Below the pieces are notes generated by a model. The model saw only the letters and a program-made list of their open reading frames with translations, made no database searches and had not been told where the DNA came from. A stretch of 64,000 nucleotides of DNA from positions 143,322 through 207,321 of the forward strand of contig JAEZTQ010000005.1 of assembly GCA_023443625.1 (NCBI GenBank), written 5' to 3'. Made by a program: the position numbers and the translations under genes. Source of the DNA: Bacillota bacterium (lineage in GTDB: Bacteria > Bacillota_A > Clostridia > Lachnospirales > Lachnospiraceae). Positions 52,006 through 60,201 of this stretch are shown one piece after another (position 1 is the stretch's first letter; every line of letters begins with the position of its first letter).

Positions 52006-52638
52006 ATGAATTTACTAGAATTATTCCTCATTGCTATTGGACTTTCTATGGATGCTTTTGCCGTAGCTATTTGTACCGGATTGACCATGCCTAAGGTGAC
52101 CATTAAAAAATCATTGGTTGTCGGCTTGTACTTTGGTTTTTTTCAAGGGATTATGCCGCTTATGGGGTATATGCTTGGCACACAGTTTTCAGATAAAATA
52201 ATTACATTTGATCACTGGATTGCATTCGCTCTGCTCAGCATTATAGGCAGTAAAATGCTTATCGACAGCTTTAAGAAAGAAGGATGTGCAGATAGGGAAT
52301 GTCCTTCTATAACATGCACGGATAGAGAATGTCCAGGCGGAGAGCGTCCCAAGACTAAGGAAGCCTCCTTAAAACCTGCAGAAATGCTGCCTCTTGCTCT
52401 GGCCACAAGTATAGACGCACTGGCAGTAGGTGTATCATTTGCTTTTCTAAATATTAGTATTACACCTGCAGTTTTATCCATCGGGATTATCACGCTCATT
52501 TTATCTATGATGGGTGTAAAAATCGGCAATATATTCGGTGTGAAATTCAAATCGAAAGCTGAACTCCTTGGTGGTATTATACTGGTTTTAATGGGTTTGA
52601 AGATATTACTTGAACATATGGGGGTCATTGGCTTTTAA
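52006..52638 (+). CDS. mntP: Manganese efflux pump MntP
   Basis: The only plus-strand gene. The 210-residue protein has six membrane helices in two homologous halves; LFLIAIGLSMDAFAVAI opens the first and LALATSIDALAVGVSF the second, with the conserved acidic residues of the MntP family. A cytosolic-loop insertion at about residues 92-120 has four cysteines at five-residue spacing (C94, C99, C104, C109) with DREC twice, not usual in MntP. Start after GAAGGAGAATATGTT. It exports excess Mn2+, consistent with its riboswitch. Confidence 0.95.
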   Translation: MNLLELFLIAIGLSMDAFAVAICTGLTMPKVTIKKSLVVGLYFGFFQGIMPLMGYMLGTQFSDKIITFDHWIAFALLSIIGSKMLIDSFKKEGCADRECPSITCTDRECPGGERPKTKEASLKPAEMLPLALATSIDALAVGVSFAFLNISITPAVLSIGIITLILSMMGVKIGNIFGVKFKSKAELLGGIILVLMGLKILLEHMGVIGF

Positions 52639-52645
52639 ATATAAT

Positions 52646-52678
52646 ACCCAGCACGATCATTTTAGTGGTGTGCTGGGT
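52646..52678. terminator. Terminator between mntP and the chaperone cluster
   Basis: ACCCAGCAC and GTGCTGGGT with an inner GAYCA/TGGT pairing. It lies between two convergent genes and is very similar to the hairpin at 60041-60070. Confidence 0.8.
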
Positions 52679-52692
52679 GTATGAATATCTAT

Positions 52693-54531
52693 TTATTGAC
52701 GTAGTAAATTAACAAATTGGTCTAAATCATTACGAAATATCTGCTCCCGTTCTTCACTATAACCTATTAATATATGGGTATAATTCTTATTATATAACCG
52801 TAATATTTCTTCAAAATATTTGCATTCTATGGGAATAATCACCTTATCCCTTCTGCTATATACATATAAATATCCCCTATTATTGCTCTTTGCTTGGTAA
52901 TAAGTCCATATAATCTTTTTATTATCTATAATATTAGGCAATCTCAATTCATTCATATAGAAAGTCCAATGTCTTCCTACCCAGAACCTTGGGCCAAACC
53001 TTTCTGCCTCACAAAAGTCCTTTTCTAAATCCTCCATCATAAAATGTGAGTTCTGTATCAGATATTCCTTCAGTAAACGAAAACAGTCAAACTTAGTTAT
53101 AAAATATAGCAATATCAACCCTACACTAAGTAAGATCGCTGAACTGGCTACCGCTATGGGAATATATCGAACACTACCAATAATTCCAAAAAGCAGTATT
53201 ACGGTTCCTAACAAGAGGCAAAGAATTGCAGGTGGTATAAATCTTTTTATGTATTCCTGTTTCATCTGCTTTTTTAAGAGTGTCCTATTGCCCGGGGATT
53301 TCACTGCATTTAGATTTTTAGTAGCATCAACAGAATCCGATTTATCACATGAATTCGGTGTATCCATAACAATCTCTGGGGAGATTGTTATATCTGGAGT
53401 ATATAAGCTATTGTCATTTTTACTAACTTCTTTATGTTCTTTGCTTTTCCTTGCTTCCCCTTCAATATACTGAAGGATTTCAGGACTACTCTTTTCTTGA
53501 AGTGTTAGAAGCATAATCTCTAACTCATCTCCACCATTTTGAATGTCCTGTATTTCGAATAGTTGATACAAAGCATAGTACATTTCTTTTGTAATTTGAT
53601 CATGCATCTCCAAAAAAATAGTTAATAGCTCAAATACAAGCGGAGACCTCTCAATCTGGAGGTAAACTAAATCATGTTCATTGTGAGTGATTTTTATAAG
53701 ATCTTCGGCTTTCTGACTAATTTCATAAGTAGCATCCTCCAAAATCCTAATCCAATCATTCATTGTTTGGTCTGATGCATCCTTTTCAGCTTCTCTTAAA
53801 ACATTCCTGTAAATATAAAATGCATAACGTCTATCCAATATACTTTTTTGACGGGTCATCATATATGAATGATCAAAATGCATATAATTTTGATACATGA
53901 CATCAATCAAAGGTTTAACATAGTCCTCATTATAAACCTCATCATCGGTCATAATGCCATAAGCAGTACATAATTCGTAAAATAAATTCTTAGGTAATTT
54001 ACGCACTTCGATATATTGCTGTTCCATCAGAAAATCTGCTAAATACCGTATAAATTTTTTATCATATTGTGCCTTTAAAAAAGTTGTCGATTCAACATAC
54101 TGCTTCCAGGGCTCCCAATGATATACTTTAGCCTTATTTGAGAATATACGGATAAAATCAACCATAGCTGCACTATTGTAATACTCTCTCTTTTCAAGGT
54201 CTACATAGTTTATTAGACTACTAAATAATAATTCATCCTGTAGCTTCTGGCTATTTTTCTCCTGGCTTTGGGCTTCCTCATAATCCTGTTTCTTTTTATT
54301 ACCATTTACCTCTAAGTCCAATTCTATTTCATTATTAAAACAAGAATTATGCTCTACCTCAGATTTAGAGGCTTTTGCCATCTCCATCGCTCTCTGATAA
54401 GCTTTATAAAGCAATTGAAAGCCTTCCGGATCAGCTTCTGGATGATGTATTCTTGTTTGTTTTGCATATGCCTTTTTAATTACTCTTTCATCTGTTGTGG
54501 ATTTTATTCCAAGAACTTCCCACATCGTCAT
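52693..54531 (-). CDS. Membrane-anchored J-domain protein, full-length paralogue
   Basis: A 612-residue protein. Residues 1-60 form a J-domain (WEVLGI.TTDERVIKKAYAKQ), but the invariant HPD is HPE (HHPEADPEGFQ). A long cytosolic helical region (about 60-400) follows, then two membrane helices (about 431-450 and 459-479) and a C-terminal domain of about 130 residues with the motif WVGRHWTFYMNE and the aromatic core GYLYVYS. The domain order resembles DjlB/DjlC, partners of HscC in E. coli, though the C-terminal domain is additional. It is the last gene of the hscC cluster. Confidence 0.85.
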   Translation of the reverse strand: MTMWEVLGIKSTTDERVIKKAYAKQTRIHHPEADPEGFQLLYKAYQRAMEMAKASKSEVEHNSCFNNEIELDLEVNGNKKKQDYEEAQSQEKNSQKLQDELLFSSLINYVDLEKREYYNSAAMVDFIRIFSNKAKVYHWEPWKQYVESTTFLKAQYDKKFIRYLADFLMEQQYIEVRKLPKNLFYELCTAYGIMTDDEVYNEDYVKPLIDVMYQNYMHFDHSYMMTRQKSILDRRYAFYIYRNVLREAEKDASDQTMNDWIRILEDATYEISQKAEDLIKITHNEHDLVYLQIERSPLVFELLTIFLEMHDQITKEMYYALYQLFEIQDIQNGGDELEIMLLTLQEKSSPEILQYIEGEARKSKEHKEVSKNDNSLYTPDITISPEIVMDTPNSCDKSDSVDATKNLNAVKSPGNRTLLKKQMKQEYIKRFIPPAILCLLLGTVILLFGIIGSVRYIPIAVASSAILLSVGLILLYFITKFDCFRLLKEYLIQNSHFMMEDLEKDFCEAERFGPRFWVGRHWTFYMNELRLPNIIDNKKIIWTYYQAKSNNRGYLYVYSRRDKVIIPIECKYFEEILRLYNKNYTHILIGYSEEREQIFRNDLDQFVNLLRQ

Positions 54532-54601
54532 ATTTCGCCTTCACCAGCTTTCAATCATCCCTGCAATCATAATGTTCTCACTGTTTCATGGATTATAGAG
54601 A

Positions 54602-55234
54602 TCATTTTATGTATCTTTTTAAAAGATATGTTACCAAATGATCATATTGATTTTCTATACTAGCATATGATAATACTTCTTCATTGAATTCATTTTCATT
54701 ACAGATTACAGGAATATCGATTAAATAATCTGAAAATCCATATTTTACAGTATCTTCCGCTGATAAATAGTACTCTGTAAATAATACATTTCTCATTTCC
54801 TCAAAGGAATGATCCGTCTGAACAGCATATTCCTTAATAATTTTAATAATGATCTCTTCCAGGATAGTAATGTTTTTATCAATACCTTCTTCCTTAGCGT
54901 ATGTATATAGAGTAGGAACAAGGACAGCCTCAATACATATATATCGTTTGCCTTTTGTTCCTGCTACAAGGAGTAGGCCTGCTATTGCGCATATTTCACC
55001 TACGGCTATGGTACATATATTACATCGACACCATTTAATAACATCATAAATTGCCATGGCGGCTGTAGTCTTTCCACCATTGCTATTAATTAATATAAAT
55101 ATATCTTTAGAAGCATCTTGATTATTTAGTTCGATCAACTTACATACAACATTATAAGACAGCTCATCTGTTATTTCCCCATCTATGATTATGATACGGT
55201 TTAATGTATATTTCGTAATAAGTTCTAAATTCAT
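54602..55234 (-). CDS. ClpP-fold protein with all catalytic residues replaced
   Basis: A 210-residue protein that aligns by eye with ClpP along its length: INSNGGKTTAAMAIYDVI, VGEICAIAGLLLVAGTKGKRY and LSAEDTVKYGFSDYLID. The catalytic serine (GxxxSxGA box) is Ala83, the histidine (VMIHQP box) is replaced by Pro107 and the aspartate near FLSA is Glu154. It is therefore very probably proteolytically dead and perhaps structural, like ClpR-type or other pseudo-subunits. The start is the ATG after GAGAAGGTAATT; an ATG 18 codons upstream lacks a ribosome site. Confidence 0.85.
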   Translation of the reverse strand: MNLELITKYTLNRIIIIDGEITDELSYNVVCKLIELNNQDASKDIFILINSNGGKTTAAMAIYDVIKWCRCNICTIAVGEICAIAGLLLVAGTKGKRYICIEAVLVPTLYTYAKEEGIDKNITILEEIIIKIIKEYAVQTDHSFEEMRNVLFTEYYLSAEDTVKYGFSDYLIDIPVICNENEFNEEVLSYASIENQYDHLVTYLLKRYIK

Positions 55235-55273
55235 AGCAATTACCTTCTCATTTTCGTTTATTTTGATATTGTC

Positions 55274-55474
55274 CGTCAATTTGCACAATCTAATTTATGA
55301 GTGCGTGATGAAAAAACTTGTTTGTTCGCAACACACTCTCGCTTGGATGAAGCACGTAGTGGTGCATAAGGCCCTAAAATACAGGACCTAAGCACCAACG
55401 GCTTCATAACAGTTGCTCACTAAACTAAGTTTCTTTCATCCCGCCTGGCAAGCTTGTATATGTGCAAATTGACG
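55274..55474. repeat. 201-bp imperfect palindrome with 14-bp perfect ends
   Basis: The element begins with CGTCAATTTGCACA and ends with its exact complement. Inside, arms pair nearly continuously: GCGTGATGAAA with TTTCATCCCGC, AAACTTGTTT with AAACTAAGTTT, GCAAC with GTTGC, ATGAAGC with GCTTCAT, and a central GGTGC..AAGG / CCTAAGCACC hairpin. It contains no gene and lies between the 178-residue protein gene and the ClpP-like gene. Confidence 0.85.
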
Positions 55475-55522
55475 AAATCACGTTTGAGGAATACCTTTTG
55501 ACACCCTAATCCTATTGGTTAT

Positions 55523-56059
55523 TTATTTCTTTCCAATTACAATATGGGAATACTTCTCCTCATACATTCCTAATAATATTTTTGCATTCTTTTTACTAAT
55601 TGGAACTTTAGTCAGTTCTTGTTGATTATTATATATATAAATAAAACCATTACTTGTTTTACCATGATGTTCTCTGTGAAAATATGCCTGCGCTATTTCA
55701 GAATTTTCTAATATATCTGGCAGACTTCCTTCATCCATATAGAAAGTCCAACGTCTTCCAAGCCAAACTCTACTACCGATCTTATTGGCCTGCATAAAGT
55801 CATTTTCGATATCATGAATGGTTATTTGGGGGTTCTTATTCATATGATCCTTTATCATAATAAGGTAATCCATGGTTATAATTCTGTGTAAAAGGAATAA
55901 CCCAAGTACAATCATTAAAATGCCCCCTATGATCCCTGCCATGGAATTATTAAGATTTCCAGATAATCCTCCATATAATAGTACCCCTCCCATAGAAAAC
56001 GACAATATTATAAGAAATATATATACGATGGAATATTGCCTTCTCAATTGCTTCTCCAT
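55523..56059 (-). CDS. Two-helix membrane protein matching the C-terminus of the J-proteins
   Basis: A 178-residue protein with two N-terminal membrane helices (about residues 10-28 and 38-57) and a C-terminal domain homologous to residues 430-600 of the neighbouring 612-residue J-protein; the shared motif here is WLGRRWTFYMDE, and GFIYIYN corresponds to GYLYVYS. It has its own ribosome site (GGGAGGCTTTGT) and is therefore a real separate gene, not just a frameshift tail. It follows the short J-protein gene directly and may supply the missing half in trans. Confidence 0.8.
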   Translation of the reverse strand: MEKQLRRQYSIVYIFLIILSFSMGGVLLYGGLSGNLNNSMAGIIGGILMIVLGLFLLHRIITMDYLIMIKDHMNKNPQITIHDIENDFMQANKIGSRVWLGRRWTFYMDEGSLPDILENSEIAQAYFHREHHGKTSNGFIYIYNNQQELTKVPISKKNAKILLGMYEEKYSHIVIGKK

Positions 56060-56111
56060 ACAAAGCCTCCCTTCTGCTAAGCATTGATATCAGTCTCTAA
56101 ACTGTCCACTG

Positions 56112-57347
56112 CTATGGAAATAAATCGAATACTACTACCAATATTTCAAAAAAACGTATTAAGCCAATTAACAAGAGGAAAATTATTATTGGTATCTTAA
56201 ATCTTTGTATGAATGGATGTTTTAATCCAGTCGATTGAACTTCATTATATTTTGCTGGACTACTTTTTTTCTTAAGGGTTAAAAGCATAATCTCTAACTC
56301 ATCTCCACCTTGAATTTCCTGAATTTCAAACAATTGATACAAAGCAAAGTACAATTCATGTGTAATATATTCATGCATTTCTAAGAAATATGTTAATAGC
56401 TCAAATACAAGGGGAGATCTTTCAACCTTAAGATATACTACATCAGGGTTATAGTAGTTGACTTTGATATGCTTTTCAACTTTTTGACTAATACTAAATG
56501 TAGCATCCTCCAAGATACTGATCCAATTAGTCATCGTTTGGCATGATGCTTCCTTTTCAAACTCTTGTAGAACACTTCTATAAATATAGAAGGCATAACG
56601 TCTCTCTACTACGTTTTTTTCACAGGTCATCATATTTATATAACTTACTTTTCTTTCATTTTGATCCATGATATCTATCAAAGGTTGGATATCATGCTGC
56701 CTATAAACCTCATCATCCGTCATAATCCCATAGGCAGTACACAATTCACAAAATAAATTCTGAGGCAATTTACTCAGTTTGATATCTTGTTGCTCCTTCA
56801 GGTATTCTACTAAATATCTTATAAATTTTCTATCAAATTGTGCCCTTAAAAAAGCTGACGATTCAACATACTTCCTCCATGGAGCCCAAGTATGTCTTAT
56901 ATCCTGATTTGAGAATATGCGGATAAATTCAGCTATAGCTGGGCTATTGTAGTATTTTCTTTTTTCAAGGTCTACATAGTTTATTAGCTTACCAAATAAT
57001 GATTCGCTTTGCTGCTCCTGGTTATTTTGCTTCTCTCTTAGGGTCTCCTCATGGCGTATTTCTTTCTCATTAACATCTCCAATATTAAATTCTATTAATT
57101 CACCCTGTTTCTTGCTTTTACCCAATTCCTCCAAATCCAGCTCTATGTCGTGAGCAAAATATGACTCCTCAGCCTCATTCTTAGATGCCTTTGCTATCTT
57201 TATCGCTTTCTGATAAGCATTATAAACCAATTGAAAGCCTTCCGGATCAGTCTCTGGATGATGTAGTTTTGATTGCTTTGCATAAGCTTTTTTAATCACT
57301 CTCTCATCCTTCGTGAATTCTATTTCTAATATTTCCCATATCGTCAT
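56112..57347 (-). CDS. J-domain protein truncated inside its first membrane helix
   Basis: A 411-residue paralogue of the 612-residue J-protein: J-domain with HPE (HHPETDPEGFQ), long cytosolic region with strong matches (ELCTAYGIMTDDEVY), then FIQRFKIPIIIFLLLIGLIRFF and a short unrelated tail. The DNA beyond stays similar to the paralogue (encoding GSSIRFISIAV in another frame) for about 40 bp, so an old frameshift cut the protein. It starts 20 bp after the hscC stop. Confidence 0.85.
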   Translation of the reverse strand: MTIWEILEIEFTKDERVIKKAYAKQSKLHHPETDPEGFQLVYNAYQKAIKIAKASKNEAEESYFAHDIELDLEELGKSKKQGELIEFNIGDVNEKEIRHEETLREKQNNQEQQSESLFGKLINYVDLEKRKYYNSPAIAEFIRIFSNQDIRHTWAPWRKYVESSAFLRAQFDRKFIRYLVEYLKEQQDIKLSKLPQNLFCELCTAYGIMTDDEVYRQHDIQPLIDIMDQNERKVSYINMMTCEKNVVERRYAFYIYRSVLQEFEKEASCQTMTNWISILEDATFSISQKVEKHIKVNYYNPDVVYLKVERSPLVFELLTYFLEMHEYITHELYFALYQLFEIQEIQGGDELEIMLLTLKKKSSPAKYNEVQSTGLKHPFIQRFKIPIIIFLLLIGLIRFFEILVVVFDLFP

Positions 57348-57366
57348 ATTTCTACTTCACCAACTT

Positions 57367-59115
57367 TCAATCATCCCTTTCATCAAATTCATCAAACTTT
57401 GCAAAATCTAACTCATCTAGGGTATCAAAAATACTTCTATTGACCTGCATATTTATCCGTACTAAATGCATGACTACTTTCTCTCTAGTTTTAAGAATTC
57501 GTATCTTGGAATTACTGGAAAGTGCAGCAGTAAATACCTGTATGCAATTTACAACAAAGTCTCTTACTACACCATCTGTTTCCATATATAATCTTTCTGC
57601 AAGTGCAAGTACTGACCTATTTTCCTCTTGGTCTGTAGCAAGCATTTTAACTTTTGATAAGGCTTTACAATTTTCTTCGATCTCTTTCTCAGTCAAAGTT
57701 GAATTCTTGTCAATAATTACTTTTCTTGATTTCTCCCCTAATCTGTTTAAGATTTCCACCTCTAACACCCCATTAATATCATAGGTAAATGTCACATGTA
57801 CTACTTCCTGACCCTTCGGTGCAGGAGGTACAGTAATCGTTAATTTGCCCAGTAAAATATTTTCATTACAATAGTAGGCCTCACCTTGATAGACACCAAA
57901 TTCGATATGGCGTTGATTATCCACTGTTGTAACAAATGCTTTCGTTATACTATTGGGTAAAATACTATTTCTCGGAATCATAACCGCCATCACCAAGGGT
58001 CCTTCACCGTTGGGATTAACAATATCAATACCAAGGGTAAAAGGGCACACATCCGTCATCATAATATCCTGTATCTCTTCTTTGCGTTGCATAATCCCGG
58101 TGTATACTCCGATTCCTGACCCGATTAATAAATCCGCTTCCTCTTTCGTATTGAGAGAGCATTTGAAAAGATAAGATATATATCTTCTAACCACCGGCAT
58201 TTTGCTGGAGCCACCCACAAGAATAATATCAGTAATATTTTCAAGGGCAATATGACTGTCCTTAATCGCTTTTTCAATGACTGTTTTAAGTCGCAATAAT
58301 AATGAGGCTGCACACTTAGTGAGCAATTCATTTGTAAAAGTCATTCGTTTTTCTTCGTTCTTATAACTAAACCAGATTTCTGCCTCCTCTTTTTCGGAGA
58401 GTTCTCGTTTACACTGTTCTGCCTTGCGCATCAGTATAGCTTTTTCATTAGATGACAATTTATCTATCTCATTCCTTTGACAAAATTCCTCAAAAATTAT
58501 ATCATCAAAATCATTTCCACCCAAACGATTATCACCGGCAACTGCTACTATTTCAATTACATTTTCATAACAGTCAACGACAGACACATCTAATGTACCT
58601 CCACCAAAGTCCACAACAAGGAATACTTGCTCTGTCCTAGTATCTTCATATCTACATGCCAAAGCAGCCGCGGATGGTTCATTTACAATTCTATCTATCT
58701 TCAGTCCAGCCATTCTTGCAGCGGTTTTTGTAGCCTGTCGTTGGTTATCGTTAAAATAGGCAGGAACACTTATTACAACTTCTGTCACAGTCTCTCCCAA
58801 AGCGACTTCTGCATCCATCTTGATTTTACGTAATACAAAGGATGAGAGCTCTTCTGGTGTATAATTCTTATCCCCTACTTTGAAAACCTTTGTCATTCCC
58901 ATGTATCTTTTAAAATAAGCAACTGATAAATCAGGATGGGAAATTAGTCTATCTTTGGCAGCTTCTCCAACTAGTATTTGTCCATCTGAATCAACACTTA
59001 CTACACTTGGCGTTAAATAAGACCCCAAATTATTCTTTAACAATTGAACCTTTCCATCTTTCCATATGGACGCAAGAGAGTTGCTTGTTCCTAAATCAAT
59101 ACCTATAATCGCCAT
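57367..59115 (-). CDS. hscC: Hsp70-family chaperone HscC
   Basis: The 582-residue Hsp70 has the nucleotide-binding signatures IGIDLGTSNSLASIWKDG, VVDFGGGTLDVSV and ILVGGSSKMPVVRRYI, then a substrate-binding domain beginning TDVCPFTLGIDIV. It is shorter than DnaK (about 640), lacks a glycine-rich EEVD-like tail and ends in an acidic DEFDERDD stretch. By length and wording of motifs it matches the HscC branch, which works with membrane J-proteins rather than DnaJ. GGAGGAATAT precedes the ATG. It is the second gene of the cluster. Confidence 0.93.
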   Translation of the reverse strand: MAIIGIDLGTSNSLASIWKDGKVQLLKNNLGSYLTPSVVSVDSDGQILVGEAAKDRLISHPDLSVAYFKRYMGMTKVFKVGDKNYTPEELSSFVLRKIKMDAEVALGETVTEVVISVPAYFNDNQRQATKTAARMAGLKIDRIVNEPSAAALACRYEDTRTEQVFLVVDFGGGTLDVSVVDCYENVIEIVAVAGDNRLGGNDFDDIIFEEFCQRNEIDKLSSNEKAILMRKAEQCKRELSEKEEAEIWFSYKNEEKRMTFTNELLTKCAASLLLRLKTVIEKAIKDSHIALENITDIILVGGSSKMPVVRRYISYLFKCSLNTKEEADLLIGSGIGVYTGIMQRKEEIQDIMMTDVCPFTLGIDIVNPNGEGPLVMAVMIPRNSILPNSITKAFVTTVDNQRHIEFGVYQGEAYYCNENILLGKLTITVPPAPKGQEVVHVTFTYDINGVLEVEILNRLGEKSRKVIIDKNSTLTEKEIEENCKALSKVKMLATDQEENRSVLALAERLYMETDGVVRDFVVNCIQVFTAALSSNSKIRILKTREKVVMHLVRINMQVNRSIFDTLDELDFAKFDEFDERDD

Positions 59116-59201
59116 ATATTCCTCCTTCGTAGTTTATTATACAATTAACATTTTGGCATTAGTTGCATTGTAACTCTTTGCCTCATATTGATTGGGTTTG
59201 A

Positions 59202-59834
59202 TCATCCATGGTTCTTATTTCTTACTGCTACCTCTTTTGCTTTCATAATATATATCCCTAACTCATGAGCACTTCGCAAACACATTTCTGCTTCTTCTGA
59301 GTTGGCAGGTATAGCAAATGTGGATCGATATCCTCGTCCATTATATGTATATGCAAGGTACTTCTTCCCGCATATCTGGATTTCTAACCCGATCTCTTCA
59401 TACTGCTTTCTGGCTGGTGCATTTAAGTTTGGATGAATAGTAACCCCATCTATATAAGATGCATCGATCACTTGGATTTTAAAAGGGTTTTTCACTGCAA
59501 CAACTGCTAATCGACCATTTTCTTCATCAACAATCCAATAATCATGCTTATATTCGAGACAATAGGAAAAAGGGAAACCTCCTTCTTTGAATTTCTGAAC
59601 TAATTTCTTAGAACGCTTATAGGGCAGTATCTCAAATAGTAAATATGTCCAATATAGAATTATTGCCACAAGGGCAATATCTAATATTACATTTACCACC
59701 ATTGGAAAACCCGGATCAAATCTAACCCATATAGCTATTGCTATAGCAATAGGAAGTATCCAAGAAAAACATAAAACTATGATTAAATATGCAATAAACC
59801 TCAAACTAAATTTTTTAATATAGATATTATCCAC
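59202..59834 (-). CDS. Two-helix membrane protein at the head of the hscC cluster
   Basis: A membrane protein of about 210 residues with two helices (about residues 10-34 and 42-64 of this start) and a C-terminal cytosolic domain with PH-like strands (WIVDEENGRLAVVAV, FKIQVIDASYIDGVTIHPN). A GTG start is chosen because AAGGAAGGATTAATAGTT precedes it; the ATG 12 codons upstream has no ribosome site. The layout (two helices then a beta domain) is the same as in the J-protein C-terminal halves, suggesting a common partner site. Family not recognised. Confidence 0.7.
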   Translation of the reverse strand: MDNIYIKKFSLRFIAYLIIVLCFSWILPIAIAIAIWVRFDPGFPMVVNVILDIALVAIILYWTYLLFEILPYKRSKKLVQKFKEGGFPFSYCLEYKHDYWIVDEENGRLAVVAVKNPFKIQVIDASYIDGVTIHPNLNAPARKQYEEIGLEIQICGKKYLAYTYNGRGYRSTFAIPANSEEAEMCLRSAHELGIYIMKAKEVAVRNKNHG

Positions 59835-59943
59835 AACTATTAATCCTTCCTTGTTGAATATTGATATCATAGATAGAATTTGATATTATCCAATTTTGTC
59901 CTAATTAGAGTTTATTTGTAAAATAAAGTTGTATATCACCAGT

Positions 59944-59971: not shown

Positions 59972-60040
59972 AATGTTTTTGTAAAATATGGGTTTATCTG
60001 AATTTCTTTACATCCTAATATAAATTTGGATATAAAAAAA

Positions 60041-60070
60041 CCAGCGCGACCATGTTTCGTGGTGTGCTGG
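60041..60070 (-). terminator. Terminator upstream of the hscC cluster
   Basis: Minus strand CCAGCACACCA / TGGTCGCGCTGG with a short loop then TTTTTTT. It ends the transcript of the 33-codon gene and is nearly the same hairpin as at 52646-52678. Confidence 0.9.
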
Positions 60071-60099
60071 ATGTTAGCTCGTATTAATATTATAAGCAG

Positions 60100-60201
60100 T
60101 CACTTTTCTTTAAAACTATTTGGGACAATTTTAAGTCCTTGCCTATTTAACGCTTCGTCCAGATAATCACCTGGTTTTGTTGCTTTTTGGAAATCAGCCA
60201 T
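60100..60201 (-). CDS. 33-residue peptide
   Basis: A short gene too small for routine calling: MADFQKATKPGDYLDEALNR and 13 more residues to a TGA. It has a strong ribosome site (GAGGAGAATTCCCT) eight bases before the ATG and a terminator 30 bp after the stop. The peptide is charged and soluble, with no membrane segment. I recognise no family; it could be a complete small protein or an N-terminal relic of a longer one. Confidence 0.6.
   Translation of the reverse strand: MADFQKATKPGDYLDEALNRQGLKIVPNSFKEK

What the first reader, a model, noticed from the sequence alone, without database searches (positions are those of the whole stretch)
52693..59834. HscC chaperone cluster with paired J-proteins and a pseudo-ClpP
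Seen: one minus-strand run encodes a two-helix membrane protein, an HscC-type Hsp70, a J-protein, a two-helix protein, a ClpP-fold protein and a second J-protein, with small gaps and a promoter before the first gene. Known: HscC in E. coli works with membrane J-proteins DjlB/DjlC and its task is unclear. Inference: this locus is a membrane-bound chaperone machine in which a non-proteolytic ClpP-like ring replaces or scaffolds a protease. I know of no described system with this set.
Basis: partly seen in the sequence, partly recalled or inferred. Interest (0 to 1): 0.85.

Follow-up and report, generated by a model that had tools for sequence, protein, structure and literature searches.

The report
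Membrane chaperone operon with dead protease
A Lachnospiraceae-like bacterium carries an enlarged version of a known membrane chaperone pair (HscC and its J-protein helpers) plus a lone protease-shaped protein that has lost its cutting residues; the pair is ordinary and widespread, the dead protease did not turn up elsewhere in the searches made, and a hairpin element between the genes belongs to a dispersed family that the RNA catalogue searched does not list.

Summary
The six genes are real. The Hsp70 is a true HscC; J1 and J2 carry the HPE motif of E. coli DjlB/DjlC. J2 is a duplicate of J1 fused to a membrane module; the two small membrane proteins are detached forms of modules that related J-proteins carry fused. 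The ClpP-fold protein has lost all three catalytic residues and the N-terminal axial loop. HscC-plus-J is a common pair: 87 of 98 loci found by HscC have a same-strand J-gene within 300 bp. The dead ClpP is not part of that pair: none in 100 HscC neighbourhoods, and no homologue above 37% identity in a word-based search of 5.8 billion proteins. The 'ClpP ring in a chaperone machine' is therefore unsupported, though not excluded. Two leads go beyond the finding: (1) the HscC-linked J-domains examined read NPE or HPE in 79 of 92, HPD in one; (2) the gap before the dead clpP is filled by a strongly folded element found in 56 of 200 genomes of one family, with two-sided changes in 36 of 41 stem pairs and no Rfam 15 match.

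The parts
59202..59870 (-). MP1, two-helix membrane protein (222 aa; 210 aa if the GTG at 59834 is used); a detached form of the C-terminal module of a related membrane J-protein
   Evidence: 42% identity over 204 columns to the C-terminus of the 700-aa J-protein P0049; no Pfam match
57367..59115 (-). HscC-type Hsp70, 582 aa
   Evidence: Pfam HSP70 1.2e-117; 37% identity to E. coli HscC over 552 columns; HscC-type deletions and insertion present
56112..57347 (-). J1: HPE J-domain protein, 411 aa, one C-terminal hydrophobic helix
   Evidence: Pfam DnaJ 9.9e-07; HPE motif; hydropathy
55523..56059 (-). two-helix protein with the C-terminal part of DUF6709, 178 aa; detached copy of the module fused to J2
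   Evidence: PF20456 82.5 bits, cut-off 27; 32% identity to the J2 C-terminus
55245..55503 (-). dispersed foldback element (outer ends approximate, right end degenerate); inner inverted repeat 55274-55287 / 55461-55474, conserved core 55302-55446
   Evidence: MFE -84.4 kcal/mol, z -7.9; inverted repeat I22; copies in related genomes; two-sided changes; no Rfam match
54602..55234 (-). triad-less ClpP-fold protein, 210 aa
   Evidence: PF00574 1.9e-33 for the ORF as listed; S97A, H122P/T, D171E; the 50 Foldseek matches listed are all ClpPs
52693..54531 (-). J2: HPE J-domain protein, 612 aa; J1-like part fused to a two-helix DUF6709 module
   Evidence: 61% identity to J1 over 366 columns; PF20456 81.9 bits
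54532..54582 (-). 51 nt before J2 that repeat the end of hscC and the J1 leader: trace of tandem duplication
   Evidence: direct repeat D2, 54352-54582 and 57168-57398, 80% over 231 nt
52635..52695 (-). terminator-like hairpin after J2
   Evidence: -17.3 kcal/mol, z -4.4; not among the sites of the consensus scan
60030..60090 (-). terminator-like hairpin upstream of the cluster, sharing a 20-nt sequence (90%) with the one after J2
   Evidence: -12 kcal/mol, z -2.1; repeat D10; not among the sites of the consensus scan

Best explanation
An HscC-type membrane chaperone operon enlarged by duplication. HscC is the ATPase. Two J-proteins of the DjlB/DjlC type, with membrane helices, recruit it to the membrane through HPE J-domains (inferred from E. 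coli DjlC), and their variable C-terminal membrane modules, some now separate genes, choose the clients (inferred). J2 arose by tandem duplication of a unit that began in the 3' end of hscC (shown by the repeat). The dead ClpP-fold gene was added between the duplicates (inferred from its absence elsewhere). Its product is predicted to fold like a ClpP subunit but should not cut; if it does anything here, a binding role such as capture of a client or a subunit, not a proteolytic chamber, is the likeliest (inferred, weak).
For: HscC membership features and 37% identity to E. coli HscC. HPE in J1, J2, DjlB and DjlC. A same-strand J-gene within 300 bp in 87 of 98 loci found by HscC; in 65 of the 75 of these that had not already been fetched by J-protein. 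Module homology and the duplicated hscC tail. Three of the four closest HscCs (73-76%) and the J-proteins P0049, P0050 and P0051 come with equal longest-contig lengths (5831, 3336, 3942), so probably each lies beside one J-gene; after both genes only 1979, 207 and 393 nt are left, so in two of them a 633-nt clpP does not fit on the contig. J1/J2 dN/dS of 0.32 (NG86) and 0.42 (YN00) fits purifying selection on the J part. DjlC stimulates HscC and is membrane-inserted (PMC8215388, passage).
Against: No expression or interaction data. Membrane helices come from a simple hydropathy rule, which also flags a stretch of the ClpP-fold protein, probably a buried helix, and the J2 model is poor (mean pLDDT 55.6). 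J2 and the two detached proteins have two helices, J2 with a further domain behind them, unlike the single tail anchor of DjlB/DjlC. By the same rule 14 of the 43 J-proteins with H or another residue at the motif's first place (10 of 35 and 4 of 8) and 47 of the 49 with N have no helix, so membrane recruitment is not general. Nothing but position links the ClpP-fold gene to HscC. dN/dS of the module pair rests on a nearly saturated dS (1.85), and YN00 failed for it.
Confidence: 0.65

Rival explanations
1. The dead ClpP is a passenger: an acquired or decaying gene caught between the duplicated J genes, with no role in the chaperone. (Compatible with the HscC-J part of the best explanation.)
For: No triad-less ClpP in 100 HscC neighbourhoods; 45 hits other than itself in 5.8 billion proteins, none above 37% identity; at most 33% among the ten listed of 76 phage and the ten listed of 104 plasmid records; a dispersed, mobile-looking element lies directly upstream.
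Against: The ORF is intact with a good ribosome-site-like stretch and the fold is still predicted, so decay is not advanced. The protein search needs shared five-residue words and can miss far relatives.
Confidence: 0.45
2. One reading: a non-proteolytic ClpP-like ring scaffolds the membrane chaperone.
For: Position inside the run; ClpP fold; loss of all three catalytic residues while the fold is kept.
Against: No recurrence. N-terminal axial loop absent, R170T and Q123T, and changes at pocket positions such as F49E, Y62L and L24T, though others are kept or similar, e.g. Y60F, F82W, I90 (the roles are recalled). Low model confidence in the handle region (110-121).
Confidence: 0.12
3. A ClpR-like subunit that mixes into the host's own ClpP ring and tunes it.
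For: ClpP complexes with non-catalytic R subunits exist in chloroplasts and cyanobacteria (search listing and abstract starts of PMC7966870 and PMC6508832 seen; the cyanobacterial case partly recalled).
Against: Not beside a clpP gene in the run; ring-contact and docking positions changed. The host clpP could not be examined: no whole genome is held.
Confidence: 0.1
4. The cluster is an anti-phage or stress island.
For: Patchy presence among kin (HscC at E <= 1e-115 in 62 of 299 genomes of the family); a weak PADLOC match of the Hsp70 (2.1e-06).
Against: The other five proteins have no PADLOC match at 0.01; the match is partial (140-311) and may be what any Hsp70-like ATPase gives.
Confidence: 0.05

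Closest known systems
E. coli HscC with DjlB and DjlC
   Same: HscC-type Hsp70, HPE J-domain, J-genes near hscC, one C-terminal hydrophobic helix in J1, DjlB and DjlC
   Different: Same-strand run of six genes; two-helix modules fused to J2 or detached; a dead ClpP-fold gene. In E. coli djlB and djlC are on the strand opposite to hscC, with DUF1266 genes before each
ClpR and other triad-less ClpP subunits (recalled; listing)
   Same: ClpP fold without the catalytic triad
   Different: Not linked to a clpP gene; lacks the axial loop and differs at R170 and Q123; no close relatives found
Clostridial hscC with a long NPE J-protein
   Same: HscC with an adjacent J-protein
   Different: NPE instead of HPE, mostly about 1000-1300 aa; 47 of 49 J-proteins of the N class show no membrane helix by hydropathy
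MITE-like foldback elements
   Same: Short, multi-copy, with inverted repeats, mostly between genes
   Different: Two-sided changes that keep pairing in 36 of 41 stem pairs, more than I would expect of a plain DNA relic; no transposase or target duplication established

Membership tests
HscC-type Hsp70 | NBD deletion at DnaK residues 76-101 (PMC8215388, passage) | tested here: met
   76-99 missing in the window protein and in E. coli HscC; the review notes a similar deletion in many non-proteobacterial DnaKs
HscC-type Hsp70 | GrpE-signature region absent | tested here: met
   DnaK 284-289 missing; the review gives 290-295 for HscA
HscC-type Hsp70 | small NBD deletion that removes the loop with DnaK D211 | tested here: met
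   208-211 missing
HscC-type Hsp70 | insertion of 4-8 residues in L1,2 and a deletion in the lid | tested here: met
   6 residues before 406; 532-538 and 554-557 missing
[quoted passage not shown]
   needs purified proteins
DjlB/DjlC-type J-protein | HPE motif | tested here: met
   J1 and J2 HPE; DjlB and DjlC HPE
DjlB/DjlC-type J-protein | single C-terminal tail anchor | tested here: inconclusive
   J1 has one C-terminal helix; J2 has two followed by 137 residues (hydropathy)
DjlB/DjlC-type J-protein | similarity to DjlB/DjlC outside the J-domain | not tested
   only the J-domain was compared
ClpP protease (Pfam CLP_protease) | ClpP fold | tested here: met
   Foldseek TM 0.64-0.69 by query length for the 50 listed ClpPs; model mean pLDDT 69.6
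ClpP protease (Pfam CLP_protease) | Ser-His-Asp triad | tested here: not met
   A, P (or T), E
ClpP protease (Pfam CLP_protease) | N-terminal axial loop and R170/Q123 ring contacts (roles recalled) | tested here: not met
   loop absent, R170T, Q123T
ClpR | encoded with an active ClpP | tested here: not met
   no clpP in this run; the rest of the genome is not held
ClpR | co-assembles with an active ClpP | not testable with these tools
   needs proteins
DUF6709 (PF20456) | score above the gathering cut-off | tested here: met
   82.5 (178-aa protein) and 81.9 bits (J2) against 27, but only profile positions 187-339 of 339
MITE | small size, inverted repeats, many copies | tested here: met
   in the window the outer right end is degenerate
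MITE | target-site duplication and a partner transposase | tested here: inconclusive
   ends of copies read show no clear duplication; a transposase was not sought
Rfam families | match at gathering score or at E <= 5 | tested here: not met
   window copy: none at gathering or at E <= 5; eight loci with copies: none at gathering

The most novel reading that the evidence does not exclude
The element at about 55245-55503 belongs to an uncatalogued, multi-copy, structure-conserved family of Lachnospiraceae (RNA or single-stranded DNA hairpin) that moves and is kept by selection on its fold; here it sits between the membrane module and the dead clpP and may set how much of the downstream part is made.
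Probability: 0.5. Interest if true: 0.65.

Novelty: new variant of a known kind. Interest (0 to 1): 0.45.

Why it matters
HscC is a poorly understood bacterial Hsp70. This locus and its relatives show that HscC usually comes as a two-gene pair with a J-protein whose far end varies and can be detached, which points to the modules as client selectors and gives pairs to test. A 2026 review (PMC13254874, passages seen) says HPE seems to be the only tolerated replacement of HPD and that it is enigmatic whether other deviations are accidents or selected; here 48 of 92 J-domains (90 beside HscC, window J1 included, plus DjlB and DjlC) read NPE in an otherwise kept gene pair, so that question becomes testable. 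The folded dispersed element is a second, independent lead.

Tried and rejected
Rejected: the ClpP-fold gene as a conserved partner; a recent phage or plasmid source of it (the ten listed of 76 phage and the ten of 104 plasmid records match at 25-33% identity; those annotated are Clp protease subunits or hypothetical); a known RNA family for the element; a further conserved neighbour of hscC-J within 6 kb (after HscC and J, the next most frequent cluster was near 10 of 101 loci, a MATE-like transporter by my reading of its sequence).

Tried without gain: profile comparison of the two kinds of C-terminal module (one search aligned only the J parts of the full-length members); J2 structure (mean pLDDT 55.6); HscC search of the order with too strict a threshold (1e-155, 0 of 392: no information); HscC in the nearest one-genome genus G100 (0 of 1); plasmid search with the gap DNA (none). 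The J motif (H or N) and HscC residue 170 looked linked (S in 41 of 49 of the N class, 5 of 34 of the H class), but on the HscC tree six independent pairs gave no change in the same direction, so it is clade structure, not shown coevolution.

Counting notes: of 115 fetched loci (L032-L146), 40 were chosen by J-protein matches and 75 by HscC matches not yet fetched; 100 held an HscC ORF at E < 1e-95 (25 and 75); partial or weaker ones (L048, L057, second Hsp70s in L076 and L128) were dropped. 23 of the 25 are also in the HscC hit lists, which gives 98 HscC-found loci (that the lists are covered I checked by eye). 78 of the 100 have more than 5 kb on both sides. ClpP was sought with a profile of seven ClpPs at E <= 0.01 and by phmmer at 1e-3 in ORFs of 60 aa or more. 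In A9 three weak antisense matches of L181-L183 were left in, the window copy (a model row) is included, and the alignment is fitted to the model, which favours the structure. At most 16 or 25 candidates per genome were scored, so copy counts are lower bounds.
Full report
What is there. Six minus-strand ORFs run from 59.87 to 52.69 kb. Four of the products fall into one picture once compared with each other. J1 and J2 are 61% identical over the J-domain and a helical middle part. J2 continues into a two-helix module that matches the last half of DUF6709 (PF20456) and is 32% identical to the separate 178-aa protein. The first gene, which has no Pfam match, is 42% identical to the C-terminal 200 residues of a 700-aa J-protein without a named source, P0049. 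So both small membrane proteins are detached forms of modules that other members of the same J-protein family carry fused. The 51 nt before J2 repeat the end of hscC and the J1 leader (repeat D2, 80% over 231 nt), which points to a tandem duplication that started inside hscC.

The Hsp70 is HscC. It is 37% identical to E. coli HscC and has the deletions and the insertion that the review PMC8215388 (passages seen) lists for HscC: DnaK 76-99, 208-211 and 284-289 missing, six extra residues before 406, and lid deletions. J1 and J2 read HPE where DnaJ reads HPD, as do DjlB and DjlC. The review states that DjlC stimulates HscC and is inserted in the membrane.

How general. I fetched 115 loci from unnamed clostridial genomes: 40 chosen by J-protein matches, and 75 HscC matches that were not among those. 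Of the 75, 65 have a same-strand J-domain ORF within 300 bp; with the 23 HscC matches already fetched by J-protein, 87 of 98 do; of all 100 loci with a strong HscC, 89 do. Of the 11 exceptions, L106, L112 and L130 have a same-strand one 2.1-3.5 kb away and L062 one 0.8 kb away. A ClpP-fold ORF occurs in 1 of 100 (L076); it keeps S-H-D and lies beside a second, DnaK-like Hsp70. No relative of the two module types was found by phmmer at 1e-3 in these 100 loci, though DUF6709 proteins occur elsewhere in such genomes (L064, L066-L068). No other gene recurs near the pair: the third most frequent cluster is near 10 of 101 loci, window included.

The ClpP-fold protein. PF00574 matches at 1.9e-33. Against E. 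coli ClpP it has S97A, H122P (T), D171E, R170T, Q123T and P124L, begins near mature residue 18 and so lacks the axial loop, and differs at several pocket positions while keeping others. The model has mean pLDDT 69.6 and is weakest at the N-terminus, in the handle and in the C-terminal tail; the 50 Foldseek matches listed, of 1026 at E <= 0.001, are all ClpPs. The protein search returned 46 proteins: itself and 45 at 37% identity or less, Clp protease subunits where named; it needs shared five-residue words and could miss far relatives. Residue roles in ring contact and docking are recalled, not taken from a call.

What follows. The HscC-J pair is well supported as an HscC-type chaperone; its membrane site rests on predicted helices and on E. 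coli DjlC, and that the far ends of the J-proteins choose clients is inference. That the ClpP-fold protein belongs to the machine rests on position alone. I give a passenger role 0.45, a scaffold ring 0.12 and a ClpR-like role 0.1; a binding role at the subunit level is part of the main explanation and is weak.

The J motif. In 92 J-domains aligned (90 next to HscC, window J1 included, plus DjlB and DjlC) the motif is NPE in 48, HPE in 31, HPD in one and something else in 12. By a hydropathy rule 25 of 35 J-proteins with H, 4 of 8 with another residue and 2 of 49 with N have a membrane helix; the rule also flags the ClpP-fold protein, so it over-calls. PMC13254874 (passages) says HPE seems the only tolerated replacement and that the meaning of other deviations is unclear. 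The apparent link to HscC residue 170 did not survive a tree-based test. My paper searches were made, in an open-licence library; no title or abstract start listed there describes this gene set, which does not prove it unpublished.

The element in the gap. The stretch 55270-55480 folds as one long hairpin (-84.4 kcal/mol, z -7.9, none of 200 shuffles as low). Similar DNA occurs in 4 of 21 kin genomes tested, with 27, 22, 17 and 9 matches. An alignment of the window copy and 19 others gave 54 predicted pairs, 17 with two-sided changes in at least one row. A covariance model of the 143-nt core matched 56 of 200 genomes of the family (G641 and G167 had supplied model rows) and 4 of 127 of the class, whose handles were all first drawn in the family search. 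On 26 matches from the window and 20 loci of 13 genomes not used for the model, 36 of 41 pairs show two-sided changes and 97.8% of cells pair, against 65.4% in shuffles and 28-43% in slid structures. In 17 of 20 copies whose surroundings I read, no kept ORF of 80 aa or more overlaps the core. Rfam 15 has no match at E <= 5 for the window copy or at gathering score for eight loci. I read it as a mobile, fold-selected family; whether it acts as RNA is open.

The genome. No whole genome is held for the window. By RecA the five best of 250 genomes in the family of L001's genome are 87-90% identical, and L001 is titled Lachnospiraceae, so the window is most likely from that family.

Noticed in passing
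window 55245-55503: Foldback element between the 178-aa gene and the dead clpP; multi-copy family in 56 of 200 genomes of the family, with two-sided changes in 36 of 41 stem pairs and no Rfam match.
   Followed up: yes
L032-L146, J-proteins next to hscC: About half of the HscC-linked J-proteins have NPE instead of HPD or HPE; they are mostly long (about 1000-1300 aa) and 47 of 49 of the N class show no membrane helix by hydropathy.
   Followed up: partly
window 52661-52680 and 60055-60074: The terminator-like hairpins on both sides of the cluster share a 20-nt sequence (90%), so the cluster may have been inserted or exchanged as a cassette; short two-copy repeats can also be chance.
   Followed up: no
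L076 15329-17857: An S-H-D clpP directly upstream of a DnaK-like Hsp70 gene, with a J-domain ORF 119 bp from that gene, about 5 kb from an hscC-J pair.
   Followed up: no
window 60100-60201: Short minus-strand reading frame (33 codons and a stop, start ATG 60201, after AGAGGAG) just before the cluster's upstream terminator-like hairpin; perhaps a remnant gene.
   Followed up: no
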